Of a DNA stretch of 64,000 bases, positions 47,701 through 61,003 are shown piece by piece (positions within the stretch are counted from its first letter, which is position 1; every line of letters begins with the position of its first letter). The notes under the pieces are model-generated. The model saw nothing but the letters and a program-made list of their open reading frames with translations, made no database searches and had not been told where the DNA came from. The stretch spans positions 7,330,001 through 7,394,000 of the forward strand of contig NZ_JAYMGI010000002.1 in assembly GCF_035825295.1 (NCBI RefSeq), in the 5' to 3' direction. The DNA is from Actinacidiphila sp. DG2A-62 (GTDB lineage Bacteria; Actinomycetota; Actinomycetes; Streptomycetales; Streptomycetaceae). Both the position numbers and the translations under genes were made by a program.

Positions 47701-48804
47701 CGGACCCGCGGCGACGCCCTGCTGATCCCCGCCGACCCGGAGCAGCCCGTCGAGCACATCCCGCTCCCCGGCCTGACCGAGGCGGCCGTCGAGCGGCGGA
47801 CCGCCCTGCTGGAGGCGGCGGTCGGCGACGCCACCGACCCCGAGGTCGGCCCCGACCGCAGGGAGGGGGCCCAGCGCGACCTGCACGAGGTGCTCGCGTG
47901 GCTCTGGGACGAGGCGACCGAGCCGGTGCTGGCCCGGCTCCCGGACGCGTCGCCCGCGCCTGGCACGGCGCGGGCGGGCCACGCGGACGCGGCGGGCAAG
48001 CCACGGCTGTGGTGGTGCCCGGTGGGACCCGTGGTCCGGCTGCCCCTGCACGCCGCGGGACGCCACCCGCGCGACGCCGCGGACGACCCCCGCCCGTCCT
48101 TCGCTTCGGTGATCGACCGGGTGGTTCCCTCCTACACCCCTACGCTCGCGGCGCTGGCCCACTCCCGCAGGCCCGGGGCGACGCCTTCGGCCGGGACCGG
48201 GCGGGCCGGCAGCGCGCTGGTCGTGGCCGTACCGGAGAGCGGGGGAGCGCCGCCGCTGCCGCTGGCTCGGCGGGAGGCCCGGGCGGTGGGCGAGACGCTG
48301 CCGGGGGCCACGCTGCTGCTCGGCGACGACGCCGACAGCGCCACCGTGGAGGCGGCGCTCCCGCACCACGCGGTGGTCCATTTCGCGTGCCACGGGGACC
48401 GCGACCCGGCGCTCGGCCTCCTGATGGGCGGCCGCCTGCACCTGGCCAGGGGCGAGACGCTGTCCGCCGAGCGCGTCCAGGAGATCCCGCTGGAGCGCGG
48501 CGCCCTCGCCTTCCTCTCCGCGTGCAGTACGGCGGAGGCGGTGCCCGACCTGCCCGACGAGCCGATGCACCTGGCCGCAGCGTTCCAACTCGCCGGCTTC
48601 CGCGACGTGATCGGCACGCTCTGGCGCACCCCCGACACCCCGCGGATGGCCGGGGCGATCTACCGGGCCCTGACCGCCGACGGTACCCGTCCCCCCGACA
48701 CCACCGCGTGCGCCCGGGCCCTCAACGACGCCCAGCTCGCCGTCCGCGACGCCTTCCCCGCCACGCCCACCCGCTGGGCCGCCTACCTCCACACCGGCGC
48801 CTGA
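44749..48804 (+). CDS. CHAT-domain protein (caspase-fold protease) with helical repeats
   Basis: A 1351-residue protein. The C-terminal ~300 residues form a CHAT domain of the caspase fold; the expected catalytic pair is His1215 in VVHFACHGD and Cys1259 in AFLSACSTAE. Preceding it, residues ~140-1050 consist of many helical pairs of TPR type (for example HRSWLEEAERCAGLAAEHS, RGILDEAVALAREAV, HPDRAVELLEEGRAVLYH), broken by a Pro/Ala-rich linker around residues 365-405. CHAT proteins are cysteine proteases that work with TPR domains in stress, cell-death or phage-defence pathways. No gasdermin is recognised nearby. ATG 44749 follows AACGGAGG. The gene is divergent to a two-gene membrane operon and ends 99 bases before a tRNA-Pro carrying a mobile element. 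Confidence 0.9.
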   Translation: MGDLERYLRTGDARDLPPLQPAVLPARPGEDAAATARLAVLRWYRYTHLPGVAGLQEYRAAVRLAALLHGVPRGAPELPVGLRPYADGVRDRRAGRRTSGRGTGRRRPGEAASGGPFGGRFRRGVRQSAGASADAGVLGPARIDELLFLMERFERRGDFSALETARGLQERWLREDATSPRERAALLTDRARLLLAVGDMGAHRSWLEEAERCAGLAAEHSARQPGDDEPRLANRLLLQGRCAAASHPADRGGLERAVHAVRRGAEAGRQRTPAHLHHAAELTDLLTRWYEATGAPEALREALTTARDLVRATPPEHRALADHRDTLEALRAKAAPVLGVHVVDTLLRPAREGAGEARRAGGTSARTGAAPAPAAPASAAPAPAAPASTVPGRAAPATTGAAPTRVPAPAPDPRLAAWWSTAENDDAPSADRRAAALALVDAVPPGDPDRPAALLLAAETEVEHWTRGSDQASPARAREWAQRAADAARPGHPLAGPALTALAESTLLMAANPSPGVGTTSVERLADDAIAATRRAVEALPADDPDTPRRLERLADVMMGAADVLSDPTVVSESIDLRRRAAALTSEDDPFRPFRLSNLAHALATGARTERSAALAEEGLAVARQAADALPRDHPRKHELLLNLASHLIETRGEGDQALRRLAEAERLYRFGLTRLPPGHRDRPRFTSSVSQVLHLRYDETGDRGILDEAVALAREAVAQTHADDEHRTSRLILMARALTARHELSTADGAPDADLRAEALDAWDAVAADPRLPDPKRFEADEHRAELAAAGDDPERALGVLAASLARISPLSRRSLTRPVRLAATWRGAQLAARAAVAAIDAGHPDRAVELLEEGRAVLYHQAMASGRLRTLLRETDPGAARRLAEIDEELSTADAYGNIAAIVTRTHVERGFGRAPEVTEDSVDPRPGHAARTRRLAAERERILAGLADDPRVTAPGPGPGPGLSELRAATAGCTVVFVLAHRTRGDALLIPADPEQPVEHIPLPGLTEAAVERRTALLEAAVGDATDPEVGPDRREGAQRDLHEVLAWLWDEATEPVLARLPDASPAPGTARAGHADAAGKPRLWWCPVGPVVRLPLHAAGRHPRDAADDPRPSFASVIDRVVPSYTPTLAALAHSRRPGATPSAGTGRAGSALVVAVPESGGAPPLPLARREARAVGETLPGATLLLGDDADSATVEAALPHHAVVHFACHGDRDPALGLLMGGRLHLARGETLSAERVQEIPLERGALAFLSACSTAEAVPDLPDEPMHLAAAFQLAGFRDVIGTLWRTPDTPRMAGAIYRALTADGTRPPDTTACARALNDAQLAVRDAFPATPTRWAAYLHTGA

Positions 48805-48903
48805 CCACGACCCCCCGACGCCACGCGCGATCACCCCCCGAAGTGCGGTATTGTTCTCCTGCGCGGTCAGCCCGGGGCCTCCACCCCACCGGCCGACCAG
48901 CAC

Positions 48904-48986
<83 letters not shown>

Positions 48987-48989
<3 letters not shown>

Positions 48990-49027
48990 CCCGCTGGCGG
49001 AGTACGAAACTCCAGCTCAGCGGGCTT
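48987..49027. terminator. hairpin between attL and int
   Basis: A 10-bp inverted repeat (aagcccgctg / cagcgggctt) with an inner ggagt/actcc stem. It lies 20 bases after the int stop on the minus strand and so likely ends int transcription. The related hairpin at 59406-59448 sits in the same position relative to the second integrase. Confidence 0.75.
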
Positions 49028-49047
49028 CTTCGCGCTCGCGGACCCCG

Positions 49048-50310
49048 TCAGCGGACGATCCGCAGATGCCGCCTCGGCGTCGCCTCTGGGACCACTTTGG
49101 GACCAGCCTCGGGTTTGGGACCCGGCGCGGGGTCGATCTTGCCTCCACCCAGGTGCGCGGACAGCGCCGCGCCGGCCAGGTCGACCGAGCGCCGGTTGGG
49201 GTGGAGGTAGCGCTGCGTCGTCGTGAGCGATCCGTGTCCGGCGATCTTCCGCAGGACGTGGAGGGGGACCCCGGCATCCGCCATCCACGTCAAGCCGGTG
49301 TGCCGAAGGTCGTGACGCCGAAGGTGCTCGTACCCGAGGCGGACCACGACCTCATCCCAGTGGGTGGCGTCCCGCAGCACCGCCGTGGTGATCCGCCCAC
49401 CACGCGGGCCGGTGAACAACCGGGCCATCGGATCGCGGCCGGCCGCGTCGAGCCGACGAGCGACCATGGGGCGAATCTCGGGGATGATCGGCACCGTCCG
49501 ACGCCGCTTGCCCTTGGTGCCCTTGTCGATCAGCCCACCGGGTCCCGTGGTGGTCTGCCGGCACACCTCCCAGGTCCACGCCTCCCGGTCGATGTCCTTC
49601 ACACGCACACCGGAGACCTCGCCGATGCGGGTAGCCGTGCACGCCTCGAACCGCACCACGTCGCCCCAGCCCTCGAACTGCCCGGCCGACCGTGCGACGA
49701 GCGCCACCGCCAGCCGATCAAGCGCGTCCCAGCCCGGCAGCGCCAGCGATCGAGGATCGTCCAACTCGTCTTCGGCCCGCTTGTACTCCTGCTGCCAGCC
49801 CGAGACCCGCGCGGGATTCACGTCGACCAGACCGTCACGCACGGCCTGTTCCATGATCCGAACCAGGACGGCAAGGCTGTTCTTCACCGTCGACCGGCCG
49901 CACTCGTCAGCGATCCACGCGTACACCGCACGGTCCACCAGGCCGTTGACCAGAGTCTGCACCTGGAGATGTCCGAGCGCGGGCACCACGCGCAGTCGCC
50001 ACCCGGCACGGTACGGGTCGAGGGTCTTGGACTCCAATCCGCGCATGGCCAGATCCCACACGGAATCGCCGTACTCCGCCAGCGTCATCGTCGCGATGGC
50101 CGGCGTGATCCCCCGGCTTGCCGCCTTCCGCATCCGGTCGAGCCACGCATTCGCCGAATCCTCACTCGGCAGCATCTCCGAGCGGGACACCCGCCGCTTG
50201 GTCTGGGGATCGATCCAGCGCACCCGGGCGCGGTGGGGGTTGGGGTTGCCCGGCCGGTACTCGATATCGGTGGCGAGCTTGACGCCGGCCGGAGGGGTCT
50301 GCGCGGGCAT
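49048..50310 (-). CDS. int: site-specific tyrosine integrase (AICE int)
   Basis: A 420-residue tyrosine recombinase that integrates and excises the element at tRNA-Pro. An N-terminal arm-binding domain (KRRVSRSEMLPSEDSANAW) and SAM-like core domain (VNGLVDRAVYAWIADECGRS) are followed by the catalytic domain with Arg in CTATRIGEVSG, HxxR in HDLRHTG, His in AGHGS and the Tyr nucleophile in TTTQRYLHP. ATG 50310 overlaps the xis stop (ATGA). Its last codons include a 21-bp repeat that recurs at the other end of the element. Confidence 0.96.
   Translation of the reverse strand: MPAQTPPAGVKLATDIEYRPGNPNPHRARVRWIDPQTKRRVSRSEMLPSEDSANAWLDRMRKAASRGITPAIATMTLAEYGDSVWDLAMRGLESKTLDPYRAGWRLRVVPALGHLQVQTLVNGLVDRAVYAWIADECGRSTVKNSLAVLVRIMEQAVRDGLVDVNPARVSGWQQEYKRAEDELDDPRSLALPGWDALDRLAVALVARSAGQFEGWGDVVRFEACTATRIGEVSGVRVKDIDREAWTWEVCRQTTTGPGGLIDKGTKGKRRRTVPIIPEIRPMVARRLDAAGRDPMARLFTGPRGGRITTAVLRDATHWDEVVVRLGYEHLRRHDLRHTGLTWMADAGVPLHVLRKIAGHGSLTTTQRYLHPNRRSVDLAGAALSAHLGGGKIDPAPGPKPEAGPKVVPEATPRRHLRIVR
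49085..49105. repeat. 21-bp direct repeat, left copy (possible integrase arm site)
   Basis: The sequence beginning tctgggaccactttggg is found without mismatch at 59239-59259. The gap to the inner edge of the nearest att repeat is 95 bases at both ends. In the excised circle the two copies would flank the att core symmetrically, as the P1/P2 arm sites do in pSAM2. Confidence 0.75.
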
Positions 50311-50600
50311 CAGGCAGCCGCCCCGGGCACGACCCGGCGCGAGGACAACCACGCCTCCACGTCCGGCACGCTGTACATGGTCACCCGCGACGTGAGCCGC
50401 ACGAACGGCGGCCCCTGCATGGGTGTCGACGTCCGCCACCGCCGCAGCGTCGAAGGGTCGACCCCGAGCAGGTCTGCCACGTCCTCAGTGGTGTACCACC
50501 CGCTGTGCAGCAGGTCCGGGCGGTTGTCCCCCGCGTGCGGTTCCGCGGGCAGCACCCGCAGCAGACCACCGACTTGAGCAGTCGTCAGGAACCGTTTCAC
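50310..50600 (-). CDS. xis: excisionase-like helix-turn-helix protein (AICE xis)
   Basis: A 96-residue MerR-like/excisionase protein. TTEDVADLLGVDPSTLRRWRT is the winged helix-turn-helix and the later PPFVRLTSRVTMYSVPDVEAWL strand-helix completes the family pattern. It directs excision together with int. GTG 50600 overlaps the repSA stop (GTGA) and its own stop overlaps int (ATGA), so repSA-xis-int form one transcript as in pSAM2. The N-terminal ~30 residues are an extension of unknown role. Confidence 0.9.
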   Translation of the reverse strand: MKRFLTTAQVGGLLRVLPAEPHAGDNRPDLLHSGWYTTEDVADLLGVDPSTLRRWRTSTPMQGPPFVRLTSRVTMYSVPDVEAWLSSRRVVPGAAA

Positions 50601-51988
50601 GTCCAGTCCTCCTCTTCGGTGATCTCTGCGCGTGCTTGCCGTGCGGTGTCGCGTGCTTGGGTGATGTCGCGGTGGATCTGCTGGGCGAGCCAGGATTCGC
50701 CGGGGGTGTGTCCGTGGCCGGCGTAGGCCCAGTGCGCGATCACGAGGGTGGTTGCCTCGGGGTCGGTGTCGGGGTCGGGCAGGCCCAGGGCGCGGCGTTC
50801 CTGCTCGGCGCGGTAGTCGGCGCGTGCCTGGCGGAGCGCACCGAGGGTGGTGGAGTAGCGGCGGGCTTTGGTGGAGAAGTGGCCGCGGAAGCCGAGCATG
50901 TGTGCCCAGGCCCACAACCGCCGGCCCGGGTACAGAGTGTCAAGGTCCCAGCAGGCTTCGATCAGGCGGCGGGTGTGCTGGGGCAGGTCGGGCAGCTTGT
51001 CCAACTCCGCGAGTTCACCGATCCGCCGGTCGACAGTGCCGGTCGTCTCCGCTGCTTTGGTGGCGTACTTGGCAACGTAGGAGGCCACGGCCTGTTCGGT
51101 GAGTTCCTCGCCGTGTCCGAACGCGCCGATGGGCTGCACGTCGAGCTGGGTGCCCCAGCGCAGGGTGCGGGCCGGCTGGTCACCCGCGGCCGGGACCGAC
51201 ACGGAGGCGCGGGCGGCAGCGGCGCGCAGGGCATCACCGAGCAGGCCCGCGGTCGCCCACGAGGGCGGGGCGGTGTCGGGTCCTTCGGGGCCGTCGAAGC
51301 GGATCACGGCGTGGAAGTGGATCGCGCCGCGCTTTTGGTACTCGGCGACCTTCCCGTAGGACACGCGCAGGCGCTCGCGCAGCTCGCGTTGGGTGATGCC
51401 GGCGCGGGCGGCGAGTTCGCGGGGGAGGTAGATGGTGACGTAGCGCCACAGGTCGGAGGCGTGGTTGTTCCACAGCACCGCGCCGGCGTAGTCGTACGAC
51501 TCGGGGTCGATCGGCGTGCCCAGCTCCGCAGCACCGTCCGGGTGCGTGGTGCCGCAGCGGCAGCGACCGGCGGTGGGGCGATTGTGGACCGGGCCGAAGC
51601 TGGGGGCGGTGAGGGTGGCGAAGACGCGGGGATGGTCGGTGACGGTGGCCGGGACGCCTTTGCCGCCGGTCAGGCCGGACAGGATGAGCTGGTAGGTGTC
51701 GCCGGCGTAGGTCCACGCGCAGGCCGGGCAGCGCGAGGCGCGGCGGTTGCCGCAGGCGACGCGGAGCCGGCCGCCCGGCTCGTCGGCGGTGGAGTAGGAG
51801 TACAGGACCTGCCCGGTGCTCGGGTCGAGGGTGGTGGTCGAGCCGGTCAGGTGGATTGGGTCGGCGCAGCCGCCGGTTCGGGTGATCTGCTGCTGCCAGC
51901 GGTCGAAGCCCGGTTGCCCGGCCACCCGGAGGAAGTCCCCCCAGGTGGTCGGGTCCAGTCCCGCCGGTAGGTCGGCGGTGAGGGTCAT
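50597..51988 (-). CDS. repSA: replication initiator RepSA
   Basis: A 463-residue rolling-circle-type replication initiator of the RepSA family, which lets AICEs replicate during transfer. It has paired Cys motifs (ACGNRRASRCPACAWTYAGDTY; CRCGTTHPDG), likely zinc-binding, then the HxH metal motif in AIHFHAVIRFDGP and a downstream YVAKYATKAAE with a candidate nicking Tyr. The C-terminal part (HMLGFRGHFSTKARRYSTT) is conserved in the family. ATG 51988 overlaps the methyltransferase stop by 4 bases. Confidence 0.93.
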   Translation of the reverse strand: MTLTADLPAGLDPTTWGDFLRVAGQPGFDRWQQQITRTGGCADPIHLTGSTTTLDPSTGQVLYSYSTADEPGGRLRVACGNRRASRCPACAWTYAGDTYQLILSGLTGGKGVPATVTDHPRVFATLTAPSFGPVHNRPTAGRCRCGTTHPDGAAELGTPIDPESYDYAGAVLWNNHASDLWRYVTIYLPRELAARAGITQRELRERLRVSYGKVAEYQKRGAIHFHAVIRFDGPEGPDTAPPSWATAGLLGDALRAAAARASVSVPAAGDQPARTLRWGTQLDVQPIGAFGHGEELTEQAVASYVAKYATKAAETTGTVDRRIGELAELDKLPDLPQHTRRLIEACWDLDTLYPGRRLWAWAHMLGFRGHFSTKARRYSTTLGALRQARADYRAEQERRALGLPDPDTDPEATTLVIAHWAYAGHGHTPGESWLAQQIHRDITQARDTARQARAEITEEEDWT

Positions 51989-52650
51989 GCGGCGGCCCCC
52001 ATGCCGGATGCGGCGTGGTGGGCGAGGAACTGGCGGGCGATGTGCAGGGTGTAGGCCGGGGGGATGGCTTCGCGCAGGCCGTCGCGAGAGGCCCAGGGCA
52101 TGCCCATCACGACCCGGGCGAGGGGGACGTTGGAGAAGTTGCCGACGATGTGCATGAACTCCCCCGGGCCCACGGGGCGGCCCATCTTGGCGTTCGGCGC
52201 CAGGTGCCGGGGGTGGTGCCGGTGCCCGAGAGGGAACGAGGTCTCGAAGTGGCGGTGGCGGTAGGTGCGCAGTCCGAACATGGACCCGCACAGCTCTACC
52301 GGGTCGTTCAGCGGGGCGCCGGGCACGTTCTCCATCACCCACGGCCGACCGGACGCGTTGAGCAGGTCCCGGACAGGGGCGATCAGGTCAGGGTGGTCGC
52401 GGTGGCGGATCTGCTGGGCGCGGGTGTAGCGCTGGCACGGGCATGAGGCGTGGATCAGGTCGAACTCACCGCCGTGCGCGGCGAGGTACTCCAGCGCGTC
52501 ACCCTGGACGAAGGTGAACGGGTAGCGCGGCTGAGGGGCGAGATCGACGCCGGTCACGGTGAACCCGGCCAGGCGGTAGCCCATGCCGGCGCCGCCCTGC
52601 CCGCAGAACAGGTCCAGCACCCGCAGGCCATGGGAAGCAGGAGCATTCAC
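51985..52650 (-). CDS. DNA (cytosine-5) methyltransferase-like protein
   Basis: A 221-residue compact C5 methyltransferase. VLDLFCGQGGAGMGY is the SAM motif, ASCPCQRYT the catalytic Pro-Cys loop and WVMENVPGAPL the ENV motif. There is no room for a long target recognition domain, which is typical of phage and element-borne versions. No partner restriction enzyme is seen. It probably protects the element's DNA from host restriction during transfer. It is coupled to repSA by an ATGA overlap and starts within the end of the upstream small gene (ATGA-type 4-base overlap). Confidence 0.9.
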   Translation of the reverse strand: MNAPASHGLRVLDLFCGQGGAGMGYRLAGFTVTGVDLAPQPRYPFTFVQGDALEYLAAHGGEFDLIHASCPCQRYTRAQQIRHRDHPDLIAPVRDLLNASGRPWVMENVPGAPLNDPVELCGSMFGLRTYRHRHFETSFPLGHRHHPRHLAPNAKMGRPVGPGEFMHIVGNFSNVPLARVVMGMPWASRDGLREAIPPAYTLHIARQFLAHHAASGMGAAA

Positions 52651-52829
52651 CGCTGCTCACCGCCCTCGCGGGGATGGGTGTCGATCCACGCCTCTGCGCA
52701 CACCTTGTGGACGGGCTTGCCGCGCTCGGAGCGCAGCGGGGTCGGCTTGTCGCACAGGACGCAGGGCTTGTCGCCGGTGTGGTCGAAGTGCTCGGGCGAG
52801 CGCCAGTCGAGGAAGGCCACGACGGTCAC
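52647..52829 (-). CDS. small Cys-containing AICE protein
   Basis: A 60-residue protein with one CxxC pair (KPCVLCDKPTPL) followed by HKVCAEAW, so a possible zinc ribbon. GTG 52829 overlaps the upstream small gene (GTGA) and the stop overlaps the methyltransferase start. Function unknown; it is tightly embedded in the operon. Confidence 0.75.
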   Translation of the reverse strand: MTVVAFLDWRSPEHFDHTGDKPCVLCDKPTPLRSERGKPVHKVCAEAWIDTHPREGGEQR

Positions 52830-53011
52830 CGCCCGGCCGTGGCGAGCGCGGGGCGGGCGGGGGTGGTGCCGGTGCCCTTGCAGGCGGGGCAGGTGGCGGT
52901 GATGGTGCGGCGGGTGCCGTCTGTGTTGCGGGTGCCGGTGGTGACCTGGACGGTGGGGAAGCCGTCGCAGTGAGCGCAGATGTGGCCCGAGGCATGGGTG
53001 TGCTGGGGCAT
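52826..53011 (-). CDS. small zinc-ribbon AICE protein
   Basis: A 61-residue protein with two Cys pairs (GHICAHCDG and TATCPACKGTG) and a His-rich N-terminus (MPQHTHASGH). The CxxCxGxG pattern resembles DnaJ-type zinc modules often carried by AICEs. It overlaps the next gene (GTGA). A strong hairpin lies upstream of its start. Confidence 0.78.
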   Translation of the reverse strand: MPQHTHASGHICAHCDGFPTVQVTTGTRNTDGTRRTITATCPACKGTGTTPARPALATAGR

Positions 53012-53058
53012 GATGGGAGATCCCTTCCGGGTCGTTGATCTGGACTGGGGGTTGGGCT

Positions 53059-53098
53059 CCCGGGGCGGCGGATACTTGGCGGTAGAGGCCGCCCCGGG
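53059..53098. terminator. hairpin inside the AICE operon
   Basis: An 11-bp perfect inverted repeat (cccggggcggc / gccgccccggg) with an 18-base loop, between the 59- and 61-residue protein genes. It could be an internal terminator or a RNA-processing site that tunes expression of the downstream replication genes. Confidence 0.6.
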
Positions 53099-53104
53099 GG
53101 CCGT

Positions 53105-53284
53105 TCAGCGCTGGCCGGAGATCCGGCGGAAGATGCGGGAGCTGTAGTCCGGCTCGTTCCGCACCTCGGTCCCGTCCGGCATGATCGTCAGCAGGGTGCC
53201 TTTCTTGGCAGCCTTCTGAAGCCACCGGTCGTCGCGCATGAGGTGGGCTTCCACCTCGACGGTTTCGCGGATCTTCTTGAACAT
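53105..53284 (-). CDS. small AICE protein, 59 residues
   Basis: The product starts MFKKIRETVEVEAHLMRDDR and ends YSSRIFRRISGQR; it is basic, with a strand-rich middle (GTLLTIMPDGTEVRNEPD). I do not know its function. Codon bias and position in the series of same-strand small genes support it. It is a typical accessory gene of the spread region. Confidence 0.65.
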   Translation of the reverse strand: MFKKIRETVEVEAHLMRDDRWLQKAAKKGTLLTIMPDGTEVRNEPDYSSRIFRRISGQR

Positions 53285-53310
53285 GGCGGTCAGTTCTTTC
53301 GGTGTGGTGA

Positions 53311-53502
53311 TCAGCGGCGGCGGTTGCCGCGGCGCTTGGAGTAGGCGGGCGGGAGCGCGTTGTACGCCTCCTGGCCCTGCTGGAACGAAGCGGCGTCGCC
53401 CTCGTTCTGCGCGGTGTTGTCGAACTCGCGGGAGATGCGGCGCATGGTCCTGCGGTCGCCGTGGCGCTTGGCGATGGCGAACTCACGGCCGAGTTCGGCC
53501 AT
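53311..53502 (-). CDS. small basic AICE protein, 63 residues
   Basis: A short Arg-rich protein (MAELGREFAIAKRHGDRRT ... YSKRRGNRRR) with a helical N-terminal half. It lies between the spread protein and the 59-residue protein on the same strand. I do not recognise a function; the basic tail suggests nucleic-acid contact. Confidence 0.68.
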   Translation of the reverse strand: MAELGREFAIAKRHGDRRTMRRISREFDNTAQNEGDAASFQQGQEAYNALPPAYSKRRGNRRR

Positions 53503-53556
53503 GGCGGGGTTGGCCTGGCCTGTCCCCGCTGCTGCGACGGAACAGGCCCATGACGT

Positions 53557-53901
53557 TCACCGGCCCTTGCGGGAGTCGTTGAGGATCGCGCGGGCGACGA
53601 CCGCGACGACGGCCAGGGACATGGCGGTGATGGCGACGGCCAGCAGCATGGAGACCAGGACGACGCCGACGATCAGGACCACGGCGGTGCCGCCGACGAC
53701 GACGGTGGCGACGGTGCCGGGGGTGAGCTGGACGACCGGCCGGCCGGACTGCGCGACCGGGGCCGGGGTCGGGGCGGGGGCGATGGTGGTGGGCTGGACC
53801 GGGGCGACGGGCGCGGTGCCCGGGTCGGCCGGGACCGTGGTCGCCGGGGGCGCGGCGGGGGTGGTGTAGGTGTCGGTGGGCGGGTACTTGGGCTGGAACA
53901 T
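53557..53901 (-). CDS. SpdB-like membrane spread protein
   Basis: A 114-residue protein: a Pro/Thr-rich N-terminal half (TYTTPAAPPATTVP...) followed by two hydrophobic helices (VATVVVGGTAVVLIVGVVLV and LLAVAITAMSLAVVAVVARA). Small membrane proteins of this kind (Spd) help spread transferred plasmids within the recipient mycelium. ATG 53901. Assignment rests on layout and location. Confidence 0.72.
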   Translation of the reverse strand: MFQPKYPPTDTYTTPAAPPATTVPADPGTAPVAPVQPTTIAPAPTPAPVAQSGRPVVQLTPGTVATVVVGGTAVVLIVGVVLVSMLLAVAITAMSLAVVAVVARAILNDSRKGR

Positions 53902-53917
53902 GGCGTGTCCTTCCAGG

Positions 53918-54106
53918 TCAGGCGGTGCAGGTGTGGGTTCGGGCGGCGAGTTCGGCGGCGGAGCGGCTGGCGTAGTCGTTGGACCAGCCGCAGCGCGGGG
54001 CGGTGCACGCGGCGACGGTGGCGGTGCGTCCGTGACGGTCGCGGTGGTCGCCGACCTCCACGGGGCCGATCCGGGCGGTGTTGGTGAAGCGCTCGGGGCG
54101 CGACAT
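53918..54106 (-). CDS. mobile element transfer protein (small)
   Basis: A 62-residue protein with two Cys (CTAPRCGWSNDY) and the pattern RIGPVEVGDHRDRHGR ... YASRSAAELAARTHTC, which I recall from small AICE transfer (Spd-type) proteins. ATG 54106 follows GGAAGGAGAC. It lies in the run of spread genes between the TraB-like gene and repSA. Confidence 0.82.
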   Translation of the reverse strand: MSRPERFTNTARIGPVEVGDHRDRHGRTATVAACTAPRCGWSNDYASRSAAELAARTHTCTA

Positions 54107-54125
54107 GACGGTGTCTCCTTCCAGG

Positions 54126-54788
54126 TCAGGTGAGGTGCGCGGCGATGGCGTCGGCGAGCGCGGGCGGGACGCCGAGGCGGGTGCGCAGGGTCGCGGTGTC
54201 GATGGGCCGGCCGGTCTGCGCGTGGTACGCGTCGGCGATCTTGCGGGCATGCGCCACCAACGCGGCCGGGACCGGTGCAGGCGCAGGGGCGGAGGGAAGC
54301 TCCGGCACAGGCACCGGGCCAGAGGCCGGAACCATGGCGGGGGTGCGGTCGAGGGTGATCGGGTCGGGATCGGCCGGCGTATCGCTCGCGGTCGCGTCGT
54401 TGACCGAGACGGGAGCGGGGAGGCTGTGAGCCAGGAGGCTTCCGCCGAAGAACGCCAGGGCGGGCCATCCGGCAACCAGGACGCGAAGGACTGCCGGGAC
54501 GTGGTGCATGTCCAGCAATCCAGCGGTGGCGACGTTCGCACCCAGGGACGCGGCAAGCGCGATGACGAACCAGGTCCAAGCTGCGCGGGCGGGATGACCG
54601 GCCGCCCGCAGGGCGCGCATGCGGTGCCACGCAGCGACGAGAAGCAGATCAACGCTGATGGGGTAGGCCCAGGCTTTCCAACCGGTCTGTCCGGCAGCGT
54701 CGGCGATGTCGTGCAGGTGCGCGAAGGACAGCGAACCGGCGATCACGGCTTGGATCAGGATCGGGTCCACACGCGGGATGCGGGCCAT
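54126..54788 (-). CDS. DUF2637 membrane protein (SpdB-type spread protein)
   Basis: A 220-residue protein with about four membrane helices in the first half (IQAVIAGSLSFAHLHDIADA, YPISVDLLLVAAWHRM, FVIALAASLGANVATAGLL, VLVAGWPALAFFGGSLLA), the DUF2637 pattern. The C-terminal half is Pro-rich and ends in a small helical domain (AHARKIADAYHAQTGRPID). DUF2637 proteins occur in the transfer regions of Streptomyces plasmids and AICEs and probably act in intramycelial spread. Confidence 0.85.
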   Translation of the reverse strand: MARIPRVDPILIQAVIAGSLSFAHLHDIADAAGQTGWKAWAYPISVDLLLVAAWHRMRALRAAGHPARAAWTWFVIALAASLGANVATAGLLDMHHVPAVLRVLVAGWPALAFFGGSLLAHSLPAPVSVNDATASDTPADPDPITLDRTPAMVPASGPVPVPELPSAPAPAPVPAALVAHARKIADAYHAQTGRPIDTATLRTRLGVPPALADAIAAHLT

Positions 54789-54864
54789 GAGAGTTCACCT
54801 TCTTTCCGAGGGATCGGGCCCGGAGCCAGGCCAGGCGACACGGCCCCGGACGGAGCGAGGTTGA

Positions 54865-55041
54865 TCAGGCAGTGCCGGTGCCGAGGCAGGTCAGGCAGAC
54901 GCCTTCCTGCTGACCGACGTTGCGGTGGCGTCGGCCGACGCGGACGGTCACGGCGACCTGTCCGGTGCCCTTGCACACCTCGCACGGGTCCGGTGCCGGC
55001 GGTTGGGCCAGGGCGGGTACGGGGGTCTTCTTGCGGGCCAC
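54865..55041 (-). CDS. small zinc-finger AICE protein
   Basis: A 58-residue protein with two CxxCxGxG modules (DPCEVCKGTGQ and VCLTCLGTGTA), like the zinc-binding half of DnaJ. GTG 55041 has GGAGG eight bases upstream. Such DnaJ-like mini proteins are common between traB and repSA in AICEs; function unknown. Confidence 0.82.
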   Translation of the reverse strand: MARKKTPVPALAQPPAPDPCEVCKGTGQVAVTVRVGRRHRNVGQQEGVCLTCLGTGTA

Positions 55042-55132
55042 GGGGATGCCTCCTTCCAGGGGTTTTCGACATGGGGCGGGTAGGGACCTGGCGCGAGATG
55101 CGGTCGCGCCGACCGGTGGAGCAGGAGGGGAT

Positions 55133-56479
55133 TCAGGCGGTGGCCGGGACCGGCACACCCGTGGCGTCGTCGGGGAGCGGGGGCAGGTCCGGGCGGAAGT
55201 CGGAGAGCGCAGGCACGTCCGGCGTCAGGTCGGCGTGGCGGTTGCACGCGGCGACCGCGGTGCGCAGGGTGACGTTCGCGGTGCGGATACGCGACCACCC
55301 GCCCGTACTGTCCGCGGCGATGGCCACCCCGCGCTGTTCCGGCGCGATGGCGAGAACCGCGGCCAGGGCGTCGGGGGCGATGTCGCCGAAGGCCATCTTC
55401 GCGGAGGCTTCGTCGTTGACGCGGTGGCACACCCGGCCGGTGAGCTGGGCACGGAGCATGGTCACCCCGTCACCGAGTTCGGAGCCGAAGCGCTGCCCGC
55501 ACACTTCCAGGTAGATGCCGGCCGCGCGGGCGAGCTGGCCGAGGCGGATCAGGGCGGTGATGATCCGCTCCCGCCGCTTCTTCTGGGACGCCGCCGACAC
55601 CAGCAGCAGTTCCGCCACCTCGTCGACGATCACGACGATCGGCACCGGCCGGGTCTTGTCTGGCAGGCCCCAGATGTCGGACGTGATCTGCGCGTCGGGG
55701 GTGTCGGCGCTGATCCGCTGCGCGGCCCGGATGAGCTGGAACCGCTCGCCCATCTCCGCCACCAGCGCGTCCAGCAGGTCCGCGGCGGTGTCCGGGTCGG
55801 TGGCCAGGGCGGTGAACCGGCGGGCCAGCGGTGCGAGTTCCACGCCCTTGCAGTCCACGCCGACCAGCGCCACCCGCTGCGACGCCAACTCCTTGATCAG
55901 GCCACGCTGATACACCGACTTGCCCGATTCGGTCGCGCCCACGGTCAGGCTGTGCGGGACCCGGCGGAAGTCCCGGTAGTGCACCGACCCATCACCCCGG
56001 ACCGCGACCGGCACCCGCAGCGGCGAGCGCTCGGCACGGGCCGGCAGGTGCACGCGGTTCAGCACGTCGTAGCCGGTCATGGACAGTTCCAGGACCCCGG
56101 AGCGGATCTCCCGCACCGCCACGTGGTGCAGCCGCCAGGAGTGCCGCAGCCGGTCCGCCGCCGTGATCACGTCGTAGGCGTCCTGCCCCGGCTGCAACCG
56201 GATGCGGGCCACCAGGCCGGTCCGGGTCTGGCGCACCCGCAGCAGCTTGGGCGGGCGGTTGGCCGGCATCTCCCGACGCATCGCCCGCGCCAGCAGGATG
56301 CGCGCCCGCGACGGGGGCACCGACAGACCGCACGCGTCCATCACCGACGCGTAGGACCAGGTGACCCGGATGTGCGCCGCGGGGCCGCCGATGATCATCC
56401 AGTACAGGTCCGGGCGGACCCGGCGCACGAACAGCACCGCGGCGATCCCCCCGCCGGTCAGCACCAGGACAGTCACCAC
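55133..56479 (-). CDS. traSA: FtsK/SpoIIIE-like DNA translocase (TraB/TraSA type)
   Basis: A 448-residue protein with one N-terminal membrane helix (VTVLVLTGGGIAAVLFV) and an ATPase domain: Walker A GATESGKS at residues 181-188, Walker B IVVIVDE ending at D286-E287. This layout is that of TraB/TraSA, the single protein that pumps double-stranded plasmid DNA between Streptomyces mycelia. A C-terminal Pro-rich tail follows. GTG 56479. It lies downstream of the SCO3933-family gene, with six bases between. It is the key conjugation gene of the element. Confidence 0.9.
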   Translation of the reverse strand: MVTVLVLTGGGIAAVLFVRRVRPDLYWMIIGGPAAHIRVTWSYASVMDACGLSVPPSRARILLARAMRREMPANRPPKLLRVRQTRTGLVARIRLQPGQDAYDVITAADRLRHSWRLHHVAVREIRSGVLELSMTGYDVLNRVHLPARAERSPLRVPVAVRGDGSVHYRDFRRVPHSLTVGATESGKSVYQRGLIKELASQRVALVGVDCKGVELAPLARRFTALATDPDTAADLLDALVAEMGERFQLIRAAQRISADTPDAQITSDIWGLPDKTRPVPIVVIVDEVAELLLVSAASQKKRRERIITALIRLGQLARAAGIYLEVCGQRFGSELGDGVTMLRAQLTGRVCHRVNDEASAKMAFGDIAPDALAAVLAIAPEQRGVAIAADSTGGWSRIRTANVTLRTAVAACNRHADLTPDVPALSDFRPDLPPLPDDATGVPVPATA

Positions 56480-56485
56480 GGCCGG

Positions 56486-56842
56486 TCAGCCCTTGCCGTT
56501 CGACGCAGCCGCCGGCACCAGCGAGGTCACCGCGACCGCACGGAAGCTGATCCCGTGGCGCTTCTGCCCGTTGAACTCGTTCTCCCAGTCCCGCGCCCGC
56601 AACCCCGTGACCGCCACCAGCGTGCCCGGCGTCAGCGTCGCGTCCACACCAGTGTTCGGCACGGTCACCTGGTACAGGTCACCCTGCCCCTCGTCCGACA
56701 CCAGCAGGCCCACGGTCATGAGCTGCGCACCAGTCTCCCGGTCGACCGCGATCTCCCCGGTCTGCTTGTTCACCAGCTTCGGAACCGGAGGCGTCGCAAC
56801 GAACACCGCGGCGGTCGAAAGATCGATCTTGAACGAAGCCAT
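56486..56842 (-). CDS. SCO3933-family regulatory-type AICE protein
   Basis: A 118-residue protein with an OB-fold-like pattern (AVFVATPPVPKLVNKQTGEIAVDR, TPGTLVAVTGLRARDWE), matching the SCO3933 family found just before the transfer ATPase in AICEs. ATG 56842 follows a GAGGAG site. It is the first gene of the minus-strand transfer operon and its promoter region holds three TCTCTAGAGA-type palindromes, so the GntR repressor should control it. Confidence 0.85.
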   Translation of the reverse strand: MASFKIDLSTAAVFVATPPVPKLVNKQTGEIAVDRETGAQLMTVGLLVSDEGQGDLYQVTVPNTGVDATLTPGTLVAVTGLRARDWENEFNGQKRHGISFRAVAVTSLVPAAASNGKG

Positions 56843-56882
56843 CACGTTCTCCTCGGAGCGAGGCGACCGCCAGTCGGTCACC

Positions 56883-57027
56883 TCTCTAGAGATGACTCCA
56901 GTGAACGTCACCTCTCTAGAGATGTCAACACGTCTCTAGGGATGTTTGCCACGGTCCGTGAGGACACGCTCCTACCGTGGAACGTTTCTTTCGCGGAAGG
57001 AACGAAGACCCCTAAGCTGTCTAGAGA
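56883..57027. promoter_or_regulatory. array of TCTCTAGAGA operators between the transfer operon and gntR
   Basis: Two exact tctctagaga palindromes (56883-56892 and 56913-56922), one near match tctctaggga (56933-56942) and one tgtctagaga (57018-57027) lie in the divergent gap between the SCO3933-family gene and the GntR gene. The first two are 30 bases apart, about three helical turns. They are the probable binding sites of the GntR/KorSA-like repressor, acting on both promoters. The region is distinctly A/T-rich for this genome. Confidence 0.85.
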
Positions 57028-57046
57028 GGCAGAGGAGAGATCATCA

Positions 57047-57805
57047 ATGGGCACCCCTGACGCCGGGCGTCAGCCGAAGTACCAGCGGATTGCCGACGCG
57101 CTGCGGGAAGCGATCCAGTCGGGCGAGTACGGCCCGGGGGACCGGCTGCCAGGTGAGAACGACCTCATGGCCACCTACGAGGTCGCCCGGATGACCGCGC
57201 GGCAGGCTCTCGGAGTGCTCCAGAACGAAGGCGTCGCCGAGTCACGGAAGGGTGCGGGGGTGTTCGTCCGGTCCTTCCGGCCGCTGCGACGGCGGGGCAT
57301 CCAGCGGCTGGCCCGGTCCCAGTGGGGCGAAGGGCGCTCGGTCTGGGAGACGGACACCGAGGACCGCGCGCTGGTGGTCGATCAGCTCAAGGTCACGGAG
57401 GAGGAACCGCCCGAGCGCATCGCGGAGGTGCTCGGAATCGAAGCAGGCCAGCGCGCATGCGTCAGGAGCAGGCGGTTCGTCCTGGACGACAAGCCGATCC
57501 TGCTGGCGAAGTCGTACCTCTCCTCAGACCTGGTAGCCGGCTCGGCCATCACACAGGAGGACACCGGCCCCGGCGGGATCTACGCGCGACTCGGCGAACT
57601 CGGCTACAAGCCGGTGCACTTCCGCGAGGAGATCCGCAGCCGCATGCCGTCCGCCGACGAGGCCCAGCGACTCGGCCTCAGCATGGGCACACCCGTCATC
57701 CTGATCGTCCGCACCGCCTTCGCCGACGAGGGCCGCGCCGTCGAGGTGAACGAGATGACCCTCGACTCCGCGTCGTACATCCTGGAGTACGACTTCGACG
57801 CGTAG
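57047..57805 (+). CDS. korSA: GntR/HutC-family repressor (KorSA-like)
   Basis: A 252-residue regulator: GntR helix-turn-helix in the first ~75 residues (YQRIADALREAIQSGEYGPG, LMATYEVARMTARQALGVL) and a UTRA ligand-binding domain after residue ~90 (ERIAEVLGIEAGQ, GYKPVHFREEIRSRMPS). In pSAM2 KorSA represses the transfer genes and its own gene. ATG 57047 follows AGAGGAGAG. The four palindromes upstream, one overlapping its leader, support autoregulation. Confidence 0.92.
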   Translation: MGTPDAGRQPKYQRIADALREAIQSGEYGPGDRLPGENDLMATYEVARMTARQALGVLQNEGVAESRKGAGVFVRSFRPLRRRGIQRLARSQWGEGRSVWETDTEDRALVVDQLKVTEEEPPERIAEVLGIEAGQRACVRSRRFVLDDKPILLAKSYLSSDLVAGSAITQEDTGPGGIYARLGELGYKPVHFREEIRSRMPSADEAQRLGLSMGTPVILIVRTAFADEGRAVEVNEMTLDSASYILEYDFDA

Positions 57806-57814
57806 GCCATCGAC

Positions 57815-58735
57815 TCAGAGTTGCCGGTCGCTCCAACGGCGTTTCTGAGTGGCCTTCCACACGTCGGCTCGTCTGGCCACTTCGAACACCGACGAGACAC
57901 GATACTCCGGCAGGTGTTGGGGAAGAGAGGCGAGGTGTTCCGCAATGGAGAGCCCGTCAACGACCAGGACCGGCGGTGCGGTTGTCGTAATCTTCATTCC
58001 CGCTGCTCCGACGATGGCGATCACAGGCTGAACGGACACGGGCCATCCGCACCAGTAACGAAGGAGCTTGGCCGTACGGTCTGCCTCGTTTAGGGAGAAG
58101 CGGACGTGATCAGTGGTCCGGTTGTTCACCCGAATCACATGATCACCGACCCACACGCGGGCGTCTGGATGATGCTTCGAGTTGATCGTGAAGACGCCGG
58201 CCGGACCGATGGCCATGTGATCGATGTCGGCACCGCTCGGCCACCGGACAGCGTGAAGAATCCGCCAGCCGCGGGCTTTCAGCGCTTCGAGGGACTCACC
58301 GACTGCCTGCTCTCCTTCCAAGCCGGTACGCCAGTCATCGGCTCCAAGGGAGAGCCGAAGCCCTCTTGCCACGAGGCGGACGAGTGCACTGCGTTGGCTT
58401 TCGATCTCACGGACCTTGTCAGCCACGGCCGCCCCGGGAGGATTGCGGGCGAGGTCGTTATCCCGTGTCAGCGGGGGTAGGGGCGGAATCGACGTGGGAG
58501 CAGCCTTCAGCCGCGGCGGTAGCGGAGCCGGAGCCGGGCGTGGTTCGGACCTCTGATCGTGCTGCCAAGCTTTGAGTGCCTGGCGGGCCGCCGACTCGTA
58601 CTCGGGGACCTCGATCGTTACCTCTCCCGTCTTCATGTTCAGCCAGGCAACGGCCTGCCCCCGTGGGCCACCCAGGTTGACATACAGGCGGTCCTGCCCG
58701 TTTTTCCGCCACCGGTTGACGTGCAAGTCGTCCAT
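57815..58735 (-). CDS. NERD (nuclease-related) domain protein
   Basis: A 306-residue protein. Its C-terminal half holds a NERD domain: GEQAVGESLEAL near residues 141-152, then GADIDHMAIGPAGVFTINSKHH, which has the Asp and Lys of the PD-(D/E)xK-like core. The N-terminal half has a strand-rich part (DRLYVNLGGPRGQAVAWL) and a Pro-rich linker. NERD proteins are predicted nucleases or DNA-processing proteins. It is convergent with the GntR gene, leaving only 9 bases between stops. Its role in the element is unknown; it may be a cargo gene acting in defence or DNA handling. Confidence 0.85.
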   Translation of the reverse strand: MDDLHVNRWRKNGQDRLYVNLGGPRGQAVAWLNMKTGEVTIEVPEYESAARQALKAWQHDQRSEPRPAPAPLPPRLKAAPTSIPPLPPLTRDNDLARNPPGAAVADKVREIESQRSALVRLVARGLRLSLGADDWRTGLEGEQAVGESLEALKARGWRILHAVRWPSGADIDHMAIGPAGVFTINSKHHPDARVWVGDHVIRVNNRTTDHVRFSLNEADRTAKLLRYWCGWPVSVQPVIAIVGAAGMKITTTAPPVLVVDGLSIAEHLASLPQHLPEYRVSSVFEVARRADVWKATQKRRWSDRQL

Positions 58736-58920
58736 CGCACCCCCGAGTCCGCACTCCTCACGCACCCAGGTCAGCACACCGGAAGCCGGAGGCGGCAGAG
58801 CGCGAATCGGCCATCAGCGCGGCGATCTTGTTACAGGTTTCTCTACCTCATCAAGTGCCCGCGCACGGCGCGGGCTGGCCCCTGCTGCCCGGCCCGCCCC
58901 CTGCCTTCGGCGGGGCGGCC

Positions 58921-58946
58921 GGCCGCTGGGGCCGCTCCCAGCGGCC
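58921..58946. terminator. perfect 10-bp hairpin
   Basis: ggccgctggg ... cccagcggcc with a 6-base loop, about 190 bases upstream of the NERD gene start. Orientation of the transcript it would end is unclear. Confidence 0.5.
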
Positions 58947-59108
58947 CCGAGGGTAGGAATCGAACCGCGTGTCAGAGACGTGCCTCCGGCGGGGGCGCTC
59001 AGGCTCCGAGATGGACCAGGGTCGCCGGCGCCCGCGCGTTCGTCGGGGCGGGTGTGGGAGCTTCCATCCCGCCCGCCATCGACCCGGGCAAGCCGAGCAG
59101 GCGCGGCC

Positions 59109-59158
59109 CCTGGCGTCCAGATCGTTCGTACAGTGGCGCGCTCCATCTGGACGCCAGG
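59109..59158. repeat. 14-bp inverted repeat, 22-base spacer
   Basis: The arms cctggcgtccagat and atctggacgccagg are perfect complements. The long spacer and position near the element end suggest a protein-binding or single-strand replication/transfer signal more than a terminator. Confidence 0.65.
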
Positions 59159-59238
59159 AACCACGCCCGCTCCACAGGAGTGCGGGCCGAAGGCAGACGG
59201 GATGGAAGCCGGGGGAGTGGTGGGTTGAGGTGGGTTCG

Positions 59239-59259
59239 TCTGGGACCACTTTGGGACCA
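59239..59259. repeat. 21-bp direct repeat, right copy (possible integrase arm site)
   Basis: Identical to 49085-49105 and separated from the right att repeat by exactly 95 bases, mirroring the left side. The identity of distance makes a functional role in site-specific recombination likely. Confidence 0.75.
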
Positions 59260-59354
59260 CACGCTATGCACGCGGACGAACAACGCCAGCTCAGATGAAC
59301 GGTCGAACGTGACTCAATGCGTCTCTGACCTGCGGAAACCCTTGAACCTATGAT

Positions 59355-59408
59355 CTGGGGGTCAAGGGGTCGCAGGTTCAAATCCTGTCGTCCCGACGGT
59401 GCACGAAG
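59355..59408. repeat. attR: 54-bp direct repeat (right copy)
   Basis: A perfect copy of 48936-48989 without the 5' half of the tRNA. It also serves as the left boundary of a second, decayed int/xis unit. Confidence 0.95.
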
Positions 59409-59448
59409 GGCCCGCTGGACTGGCATTCGGCCAGGTCAGCGGGCCCTT
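59406..59448. terminator. hairpin between attR and the second integrase
   Basis: A perfect 12-bp inverted repeat (aagggcccgctg / cagcgggccctt) at the same place relative to att and int as the hairpin at 48987-49027. It supports a shared ancestry of the two integration modules. Confidence 0.75.
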
Positions 59449-59592
59449 TGTCCTCTCTGGTAATAATGTTCATCTGATGCCGGGTCAGTAGCCAGGGACC
59501 ACGTGGGGACGGTGGCTCAAGAAAACCTGCAGGTCAGCGGTTGTTTTGCCAGGGACCAAGATCGCCTTTTGCGGTCGGGCATTGTGTACTTC

Positions 59593-60715
59593 CTACAATC
59601 TCCTCAGCGTTGCCGACATGGCGGGTGAGGGTGGGGGAGGAGTGTGTACGCCGGTGAGGTGGGTGCTGAGGGTGTGGCTGGCGCGGGTGACGGTGTGCAG
59701 GTCGGGGTGCAGGTAGCGCTGGGTGGTCTGCAGGGAGCCGTGGCCGGCGATCAGGCGTAGGACGTGCAGGGGCACTCCGGCATCTGCCATCCAGGTCAGG
59801 CGGGTGTGGCGCAGGTCGTGGTGGCGCAGGTGGTCGTAGCCGAGGGCGAGTACGCGCTGGGCGATCATCGGGCGGACCTCCTGGACGAGGGGGACGCGGC
59901 GGGCGACCTTGCCCTTGGTGTTCTTGTCGGCGAGGCCGCCGGGGGAGGGCGTGGTCTGGCGCCGGACGGTCCAGATCCAGTTGGTGAGGTCGATGTCCTT
60001 GACGCGGGCGCCTGATACTTCGCCGATGCGGGCGGCGGTGCAGGCGGCGAAGGTGACGGCCTCGCCCCAGCCCGGGTACTGGTCGGCAGAGTGGGCGACC
60101 AGGGCCGCGGCGAGTTCCTGCAGCGCGCCCCAGTCGCGAAGGGCGAGCGCGCGGGGGTCGTCGAGTTCGTCTTCGGCGAGCTGGTACTGGCGTTGCCAGC
60201 CTTTGACCCGGGCGGGGTTGGCGGTGATGAGTCCATCGCGGACGGCCTGCTCCATGACGCGGACGAGGACGGCGAGGGTGCTCTTGACGGTGGAGCGTCC
60301 TTCGCCGTCGGCGATCCAGGCATAGGCGGTGCGGTCGACGGCGCCGTTGGTGACCAACGGTGACCGGCAGGTGCCCGAGCGCGGGCACGACGCGAAGTCG
60401 CCACCCGGCGAGGTAGGGGTCGGTGGTCTTGGGCTCCAGTCCGCGAAGCGCCAGTTGCATGTGGGCGTTGCCGTATGCGGCCAGGGTCTGCGTGGCGGCT
60501 GCCGGGTCGACGCCTCGGCTTGCCGAGGCGAGCAGGGAGTCGATCCATTCATGTGCTGCCTCGGGGGTGGGGTGTGCCTGGGTGATCGAGCGCCGGCGCT
60601 TGGTGTGGGGGTCGACCCAGCGGACGCGGGCCTTATAGGAGAGCCTTCGGTCCTGGCGGTGCTCGATGTCGTGCGACAGCGGGACGGCGACGGGGAGCTG
60701 GTGGCGGTAGGGCAA
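59593..60715 (-). pseudogene. second AICE integrase, decayed (frameshift and internal deletion)
   Basis: A relative of the intact integrase at 49048. The N-terminal ~115 residues (YKARVRWVDPHTKRRRSITQAH ... VVPALGHLPVTV) read in one frame from about 60715, the rest (VTNGAVDRTAYAWIADGEGRS ... TTQRYLHPDL) in another; one extra base near 60357 accounts for this. The catalytic domain keeps Arg in CTAARIGEVSG, HDLRH, AGHGS and QRYLHP, but it lacks about 36 residues between RPMIAQRV and LGYDHLRHHDLRH, which the first copy has. It is therefore probably inactive. It lies behind attR exactly as the first integrase lies behind attL. Confidence 0.85.
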
Positions 60716-61003
60716 TCAGGCCGCCTTTTGCCGCGGGTGGGGTGTGGTGCGGCGTGTGTCGAGCCAGTGCTGAAGGTCTTGCGCGGCGTAGAGGACGACG
60801 CGCTCGGACAGGCGAATGAACGGCGGCCCCTGCGGCGGCTGCTCGGCGCGCCACCGCCGCACCGAGGAGGGGTCGACCCGCAGCAGCCGGGCCACCTCCT
60901 CGGTGGTCAGCAAGGGCGAGGCGAGTGGGCCTGCCTGGGCCGGTCGGGCGGTGAGCGAAGCCGATAGGGAGGTCGGCTCCGGCGAGATGGCGTGCTGCGG
61001 CAT
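60716..61003 (-). CDS. excisionase-like helix-turn-helix protein (second element)
   Basis: A 95-residue protein with TTEEVARLLRVDPSSVRRWRA and GPPFIRLSERVVLYAAQDLQHWL, the same pattern as the xis at 50310. It ends at the start of the decayed integrase, as xis does for int. The gene itself looks intact, but no repSA or transfer gene lies upstream; only about 90 bases separate it from a MITE. It is a remnant of a second AICE. Confidence 0.85.
   Translation of the reverse strand: MPQHAISPEPTSLSASLTARPAQAGPLASPLLTTEEVARLLRVDPSSVRRWRAEQPPQGPPFIRLSERVVLYAAQDLQHWLDTRRTTPHPRQKAA

What the first reader, a model, noticed from the sequence alone, without database searches (positions are those of the whole stretch)
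49085..59259. 21-bp direct repeat exactly 95 bp inside each att copy
The sequence at 49085-49105 and 59239-59259 is identical, and the gap to the adjacent att repeat is 95 bases at both ends. In the excised circle these would flank the att core symmetrically, as the arm-type sites P1/P2 do for pSAM2 integrase. The left copy lies within the last codons of int, so its sequence does two jobs at once.
Basis: partly seen in the sequence, partly recalled or inferred. Interest (0 to 1): 0.62.

Follow-up and report, generated by a model that had tools for sequence, protein, structure and literature searches.

The report
Paired integrase arm sites flanking att
A short doubled DNA word sits just inside both ends of a mobile element in an actinobacterium, very probably as a docking site for the enzyme that moves the element; relatives across the Actinobacteria keep the same word at a few preferred distances from the insertion point, spaced by about one DNA helical turn.

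Summary
Confirmed: TCTGGGACCACTTTGGGACCA at 49085-49105 and 59239-59259, each 95 bp from the 54-bp att repeat. The repeat is two half-sites 11 bp apart (int-sense GGTCCC-N5-GGTCCC). 69 of 81 loci with this kind of integrase have such a pair near the int stop. In 11 elements with both ends resolved it sits at both ends, on the same strand. Whole-genome scans that ignored int found 74 far-side and 136 int-side sites beside tRNA ends, none for the reversed pattern.

The arm-type-site reading is well supported. The exact 95/95 symmetry is not: it depends on where the identity block happens to end. The far-side arm is 139-141 bp from the tRNA 3' end at 12 of 13 far att copies. The int-side arm clusters near 64, 97, 109, 118, 130 or 142 bp, roughly 11-bp steps. 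Overlap with int is real but incidental: the site lies in two reading frames, after the stop, or (six relatives) apart from int, up to 14.4 kb beyond its stop, while staying 108-110 bp from the tRNA.

No binding was tested. Arm-type sites are a known kind; new are this motif family and the stepped spacing.

The parts
48904..48978 (+). tRNA-Pro(GGG), the attachment target; its 3' 43 nt form the att core
48936..48989 (+). att copy 1 (int side of element 1)
   Evidence: 54/54 identity
48986..49029 (.). GC-rich hairpin between tRNA and arm (approximate limits), probably a terminator shared by the convergent tRNA and int genes
   Evidence: fold
49085..49105 (+). int-side arm site: half-sites TGGGACCA 49087-49094 and 49098-49105; 109 bp from the tRNA 3' end; inside the int CDS
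49048..50310 (-). int, tyrosine integrase (PF00589); ATG start proposed here (the longest ORF runs to 50439)
50310..50915 (-). ORF with an HTH_17 domain, probable xis (excisionase)
50597..52342 (-). RepSA-type replication initiator
   Evidence: PF20199, 5.5e-152
55133..56479 (-). FtsK/SpoIIIE-type transfer protein
   Evidence: PF01580
59239..59259 (+). far-side arm site: half-sites 59241-59248 and 59252-59259; 139 bp from the tRNA 3' end of att copy 2
59355..59408 (+). att copy 2, junction of element 1 with a second element
59495..59511 (+). int-side arm of element 2 (GGGACC-N5-GGGACg, 1 mismatch), 97 bp from the tRNA 3' end

Best explanation
The repeat is the pair of arm-type binding sites (one per arm) of the element's own tyrosine integrase. 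Each site is two GGTCCC half-sites one helical turn apart (11 bp), so two Int N-terminal domains could sit side by side on one face of the DNA. Int would bridge each arm to the core in the tRNA-Pro anticodon-loop region, with DNA bending between; this discriminates attP from attB and, with Xis, sets direction. The intasome fixes the far arm tightly and tolerates the int-side arm mainly at steps of about one turn. Shown: the anatomy, its place at the element ends, its conservation, and the clustered distances. Inferred: Int as the binder, the stoichiometry, the bending, the crossover point and the role in direction.
For: 69 of 81 int loci carry the site (at most 1 mismatch; 67 exact) near the int stop. 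A far-side site is 139-141 bp from the tRNA 3' end at 12 of 13 far att copies. Of 11 both-ended elements 9 have exactly two same-strand sites, one at each end; L085 has these two plus one weak internal match; L082 has one exact site and a one-mismatch far site. Scans without int: 74 far-side sites in 59 of 394 genomes, 56 of 74 within a 4-bp range; 136 int-side sites in 114 of 384 genomes, 1 of them at 67-93 bp where about 60 would be expected if uniform; reversed control 0 in both. Far-side sites go with the integrase: 33 of 73 genomes with int against 26 of 321 without, odds ratio 9.4. In six of six fetched relatives whose tRNA lies 0.2-14.5 kb from the int stop, the site stays 108-110 bp from the tRNA. 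The site lies in two reading frames or after the stop. Int has a confidently modelled N-terminal beta-beta-beta-alpha domain, the topology I recall for lambda and Tn916 arm-binding domains.
Against: No binding data. A Xis-like ORF sits upstream of int in 95 of 104 loci (duplicates included), so Xis is not excluded as the binder by co-occurrence. The N-terminal domain alone has no Foldseek PDB match at E <= 0.001 and Pfam gives it no arm-binding family. 12 of 81 loci lack the site near int, and 22 of 92 distinct int CDS have no exact site near the stop; only five of the 22 were shown to have it elsewhere. 26 of 59 genomes with a far-side site have no integrase hit at E <= 1e-60. The int-side distance classes are several bp wide (95-101, 106-114).
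Confidence: 0.85

Rival explanations
1. The sites bind Xis (the recombination directionality factor) rather than Int, as a filament of direct repeats one turn apart.
For: Direct repeats one helix turn apart are described for RDFs (abstract of PMC7498355, seen in the listing). A Xis-like ORF accompanies int in 95 of 104 loci. In three loci (L042, L065, L073) the motif is a GGTCCA variant and no window-type Xis was detected.
Against: RDF sites usually lie on one arm (recalled), whereas these lie on both. L037, L064, L086 and L171 (L086 and L171 are probably one locus) have the standard motif without a detected Xis-like ORF, but L064's int is itself truncated (its match starts at residue 83), so this is weak.
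Confidence: 0.1
2. The repeat is a by-product: a duplicated scrap of the int 3' end left at the far end by an illegitimate event, without function.
For: The left copy is coding sequence, and the window's two copies are identical.
Against: The far-side site is at a fixed distance at 12 of 13 far att copies and recurs in elements found without int. In 7 of 11 elements the two copies differ. The site does not follow int when int lies elsewhere.
Confidence: 0.02
3. It is an operator or transfer/replication site (for example a clt or a regulator box) that happens to lie near att.
For: The element encodes RepSA and an FtsK-type protein and what I read by eye as a GntR-type regulator (not tested).
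Against: Only one weak further same-strand match inside 11 elements; spacing is tied to the tRNA end, not to a gene.
Confidence: 0.03

Closest known systems
pSAM2 attP arm-type sites P1/P2 and the pACPL 21-nt repeats (actinomycete AICEs)
   Same: AICE with a repeat on each arm of attP; pACPL also uses a tRNA-Pro and a 43-nt core. pACPL repeats are GTCACCCAGTTAGT(T/C)AC(C/T)CAG, which I read as two half-sites about one turn apart (passages of PMC3364876; Int binding in pSAM2 as cited there).
   Different: Different half-site (GGTCCC). The integrases may not be close: pMR2, another AICE plasmid, is 27.5% identical; pSAM2 Int itself was not compared.
Cluster J mycobacteriophage attP (Omega, BAKA)
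   Same: 44-bp core whose left end is in a tRNA anticodon loop; pairs of imperfect direct-repeat arm sites on both sides; attP 3' of int (passages of PMC3706429).
   Different: Half-site TGCATACg/tPuPy, phage, tRNA-Leu.
Lambda Int arm-type sites
   Same: Heterobivalent integrase logic (recalled); the Int model matches full-length lambda Int (1z1b, 1.2e-8).
   Different: Different sequences and layout (recalled); no IHF or Xis site mapped here.

Membership tests
Arm-type sites of lambda-like tyrosine integrases | Repeated site on both sides of the attP core, outside it | tested here: met
Arm-type sites of lambda-like tyrosine integrases | Absent from the chromosomal attB side | tested here: met
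   Left flank only: upstream of the tRNA the window has just one match with up to 4 mismatches, 6.7 kb away. The right flank is occupied by element 2 and was not testable.
Arm-type sites of lambda-like tyrosine integrases | Integrase has an N-terminal arm-binding domain | tested here: inconclusive
   beta-beta-beta-alpha domain modelled; no significant PDB match of the domain alone
Arm-type sites of lambda-like tyrosine integrases | Int binds the sites | not testable with these tools
   needs gel shift or footprint
pSAM2 P1/P2 site family | pSAM2/pACPL-type sequence (GTCACCCAG-like) | tested here: not met
   Window half-site is GGTCCC; compared by eye with the pACPL sequence printed in PMC3364876
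[quoted passage not shown]
   xis by its HTH_17 domain and place only
RDF (Xis) binding sites | Helix-turn-spaced direct repeats on one arm only | tested here: inconclusive
   Spacing fits, but sites are on both arms; the one-arm rule is recalled

The most novel reading that the evidence does not exclude
The arm-to-core distance evolves in whole helical turns. The far arm is pinned (139-141 bp from the tRNA 3' end, with minority classes about 10 bp either way), while the int-side arm hops by multiples of about 11 bp (64, 97, 109, 118, 130, 142), possibly by gaining a half-site on the 11-bp lattice and losing an old one. The intasome would then be a flexible-length but phase-locked bridge, and int coding sequence is written over wherever the site lands.
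Probability: 0.5. Interest if true: 0.6.

Novelty: new member of a known kind. Interest (0 to 1): 0.47.

Why it matters
It gives a sequence rule (GGTCCC-N5-GGTCCC at set distances from a tRNA end) that finds ends of a widespread family of actinobacterial integrative elements without knowing the integrase. It suggests a minimal attP for building integration vectors, and offers a natural series of spacings for testing whether an intasome is phase-locked rather than length-locked.

Tried and rejected
Exact symmetry as a rule was rejected. The genome-wide pair at G000:C2:4343114 was set aside: it lies in a GGTCCC-rich stretch with no tRNA on the 6.5-kb piece and no integrase that I recognised among its ORFs of 150 aa or more. 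The phylum-wide int search gave 4 of 396 genomes, all already known, so its sample was too thin. Structural search of the N-terminal domain gave nothing specific: no Foldseek hit at E <= 0.001; VIA-align's best rows are PH domains at Z 6.5, and an AP2 DNA-binding repeat (6sy0) is at Z 4.5; lambda and Tn916 arm domains were not among the rows shown, which excludes nothing. L044's far-side 'att' was judged not real because its identity runs the wrong way. Rfam gives only the tRNA in 48000-61000. The phase statistic on far-side shifts alone is weak (1596 of 20000 random sets reach it). A third GGGACC at 49117-49122, 18 bp from the second and so off the lattice, was noted and not used. Co-variation of motif variants with the Int N-terminus was not tested (too few independent changes). 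A third reading frame for the site was dropped: its only case is a read-through ORF.

Full report
Observation. The 21-bp repeat is present as stated and is beyond chance: two matches at up to 3 mismatches in the window, shuffle mean 0.00 over 100 shuffles. It is a tandem of TGGGACCA with an 11-bp period. On the int strand the constant part is GGTCCC-N5-GGTCCC. The att repeat is the last 43 nt of tRNA-Pro(GGG), from the anticodon loop to the 3' end, plus 11 bp.

Setting. Between the att copies lie int (PF00589), an HTH_17 ORF (probable xis), RepSA (PF20199), an FtsK/SpoIIIE protein, DUF2637 and NERD proteins: an AICE. By matching contig lengths I infer that the genus is that of Actinacidiphila (Streptomycetaceae). 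Element 1 is followed by a second element with an integrase remnant, then a third att copy followed by a truncated int 3' end that carries the same 21-mer. Element 2 has an int-side arm with one mismatch, 97 bp from its tRNA end, but nothing closer than 3 mismatches in the 360 bp around the expected far-side place. In the window's genus 12 of 35 genomes have an exact TGGGACCA-N3-TGGGACCA, control 0.

Relatives near int. The genome scan returned 80 loci, the best 80 of 125 relatives. With the window, 69 of 81 have a site (at most 1 mismatch to a slightly relaxed motif; 67 with none) between 150 bp before and 350 bp after the int stop. The 12 without are L015, L022, L025, L026, L031, L045, L046, L056, L058, L069, L072 and L076; for L045 the stop was probably mis-called, since one search shows a one-mismatch site. 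A tRNA was found near the int stop in 54 of 81, and only these could be searched for a far att copy.

Both ends. A far att copy was reported for 10 loci and for 3 of the int places in the 40 fetched Streptomycetaceae regions (regions are 20 kb at most, so longer elements are missed). Twelve of the 13 have a site 139-141 bp from the tRNA 3' end; the exception, L044, is probably not a real att. In the 11 elements with both sites usable, 9 have exactly two same-strand sites, at the ends; L085 has these plus one weak internal match, and L082's far site has one mismatch. Five weak reverse-strand matches occur in four elements; 0-0.85 matches per element are expected by chance. The two copies differ in 7 of 11, so the 21-bp identity in the window is more than the family requires.

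Scans that ignore int. GATTTGAACC-N{100,130}-GGTCCCN5GGTCCC matched in 59 of 394 genomes, reversed control 0. Of the 74 places 56 have a gap of 115-118, 14 of 125-126, 2 of 106-107 and one each of 102 and 114. The mirror pattern matched in 114 of 384 genomes, control 0. Its 136 places give distances 63-66 (58), 78 (1), 95-100 (26), 106-114 (50) and 118 (1, whose context does not look like a tRNA end to me), where 59-119 was open. Both scans fix a T-loop word typical of tRNA-Pro, so other targets are under-counted. Genomes with the far-side pattern are enriched for the integrase: 33 of 73 against 26 of 321, odds ratio 9.4 (from lists copied).

Phase. On an 85-protein tree the 64/65 class appears in two separate groups (Streptomyces, Nocardia), 108-112 mainly in the window's group, 118/129/130 in one Pseudonocardia group and 141/143 in another. 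Taking seven int-side shifts by hand from that tree, the mean cosine is 0.93 at an 11-bp period; 3 of 20000 random sets reach the best value over periods 10-12. Five far-side shifts alone are not significant (1596 of 20000); all twelve together 0 of 20000. The choice of shifts was mine, shared ancestry is only roughly handled, and single classes are up to 9 bp wide, so a strict lock is not shown.

Double use. Of 92 distinct int CDS, 42 hold an exact site and 30 have one after the stop (27 of them within 150 bp); 2 have both, and 22 have no exact site near the stop. Leaving out three read-through ORFs (L010, L079, L156), the sites inside int lie in two reading frames, 25 and 14. Inside int the site uses codons that are rare in these genes: GGT 0.117 of Gly, CCA 0.065 of Pro, AAA 0.143 of Lys, AGT 0.045 of Ser. 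In six relatives of the window's wider group, fetched because one search had shown a site in the same genome, the tRNA lies 0.2-14.5 kb from the int stop, the site is not in int, and it is 108-110 bp from the tRNA in all six. Other int loci without a site (for example L142, L155, L159, L161, L162, L168) were not resolved. I conclude that selection is on DNA tied to att, and that the overlap with int is a consequence of where int sits.

Integrase. The AlphaFold2 model (58 sequences, mean pLDDT 79) has an N-terminal beta-beta-beta-alpha domain, residues 13-65, with block means of 86-95 over residues 11-60; the domain alone repeats this. The full model matches Tn1549 Int (6emz, 6.9e-11) and lambda Int (1z1b, 1.2e-8). 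The domain alone has no significant match, so membership of the known arm-binding fold is likely but not shown.

Literature. Seven searches in the open library led to passages on arm-type sites for pACPL/pSAM2 (PMC3364876), cluster J phages (PMC3706429) and cluster K/L phages (PMC10865867). Passages of PMC9513070, PMC4111918, PMC9033027 and PMC6109161 added nothing on this motif. None of the listings or passages I saw mentioned a GGTCCC family or stepped spacing; the primary pSAM2 attP paper and an AICE review are not held, so priority cannot be claimed.

Verdict. These are very probably arm-type sites of a known kind, with a motif family and a stepped spacing that I did not find described and that deserve a direct test.

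Noticed in passing
window 48986-49029 and about 59403-59450; relatives: A GC-rich hairpin lies between the tRNA 3' end and the int-side arm; a perfect stem of 8 bp or more is present in 64 of 68 relatives' segments (duplicates included) against 20 of 340 mononucleotide shuffles. Probably a terminator that replaces the tRNA gene's own on integration.
   Followed up: partly
window 59040-59238: A very stable nested stem-loop just inside the far-side arm (-103 kcal/mol over 199 nt; inverted repeats I2 and I4). It could be a single-strand origin or a regulatory RNA; no shuffle control was run.
   Followed up: no
window 59534-60715: Integrase of the second element looks decayed: about 35 residues missing before the RHDLRHT motif and a probable frame change near the N-terminus, by comparing ORFs and repeat spacings by eye.
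   Followed up: partly
window-scale 69610-69870 (L005): Third att copy followed by a truncated int 3' end with an intact arm site: the relic of a third integration at the same tRNA.
   Followed up: yes
several G genomes, e.g. G237:C1:261438-261719, G030:C1:1769169-1769451: Att copies with an arm on both sides (overlapping matches), as at a junction of tandem elements or in a free circle.
   Followed up: no
L075, L150: Similar arm spacing beside other tRNAs: tRNA-Ala(GGC) at 98 bp and tRNA-Arg(ACG) at 96 bp, so the arm rule may not depend on the tRNA-Pro target.
   Followed up: no
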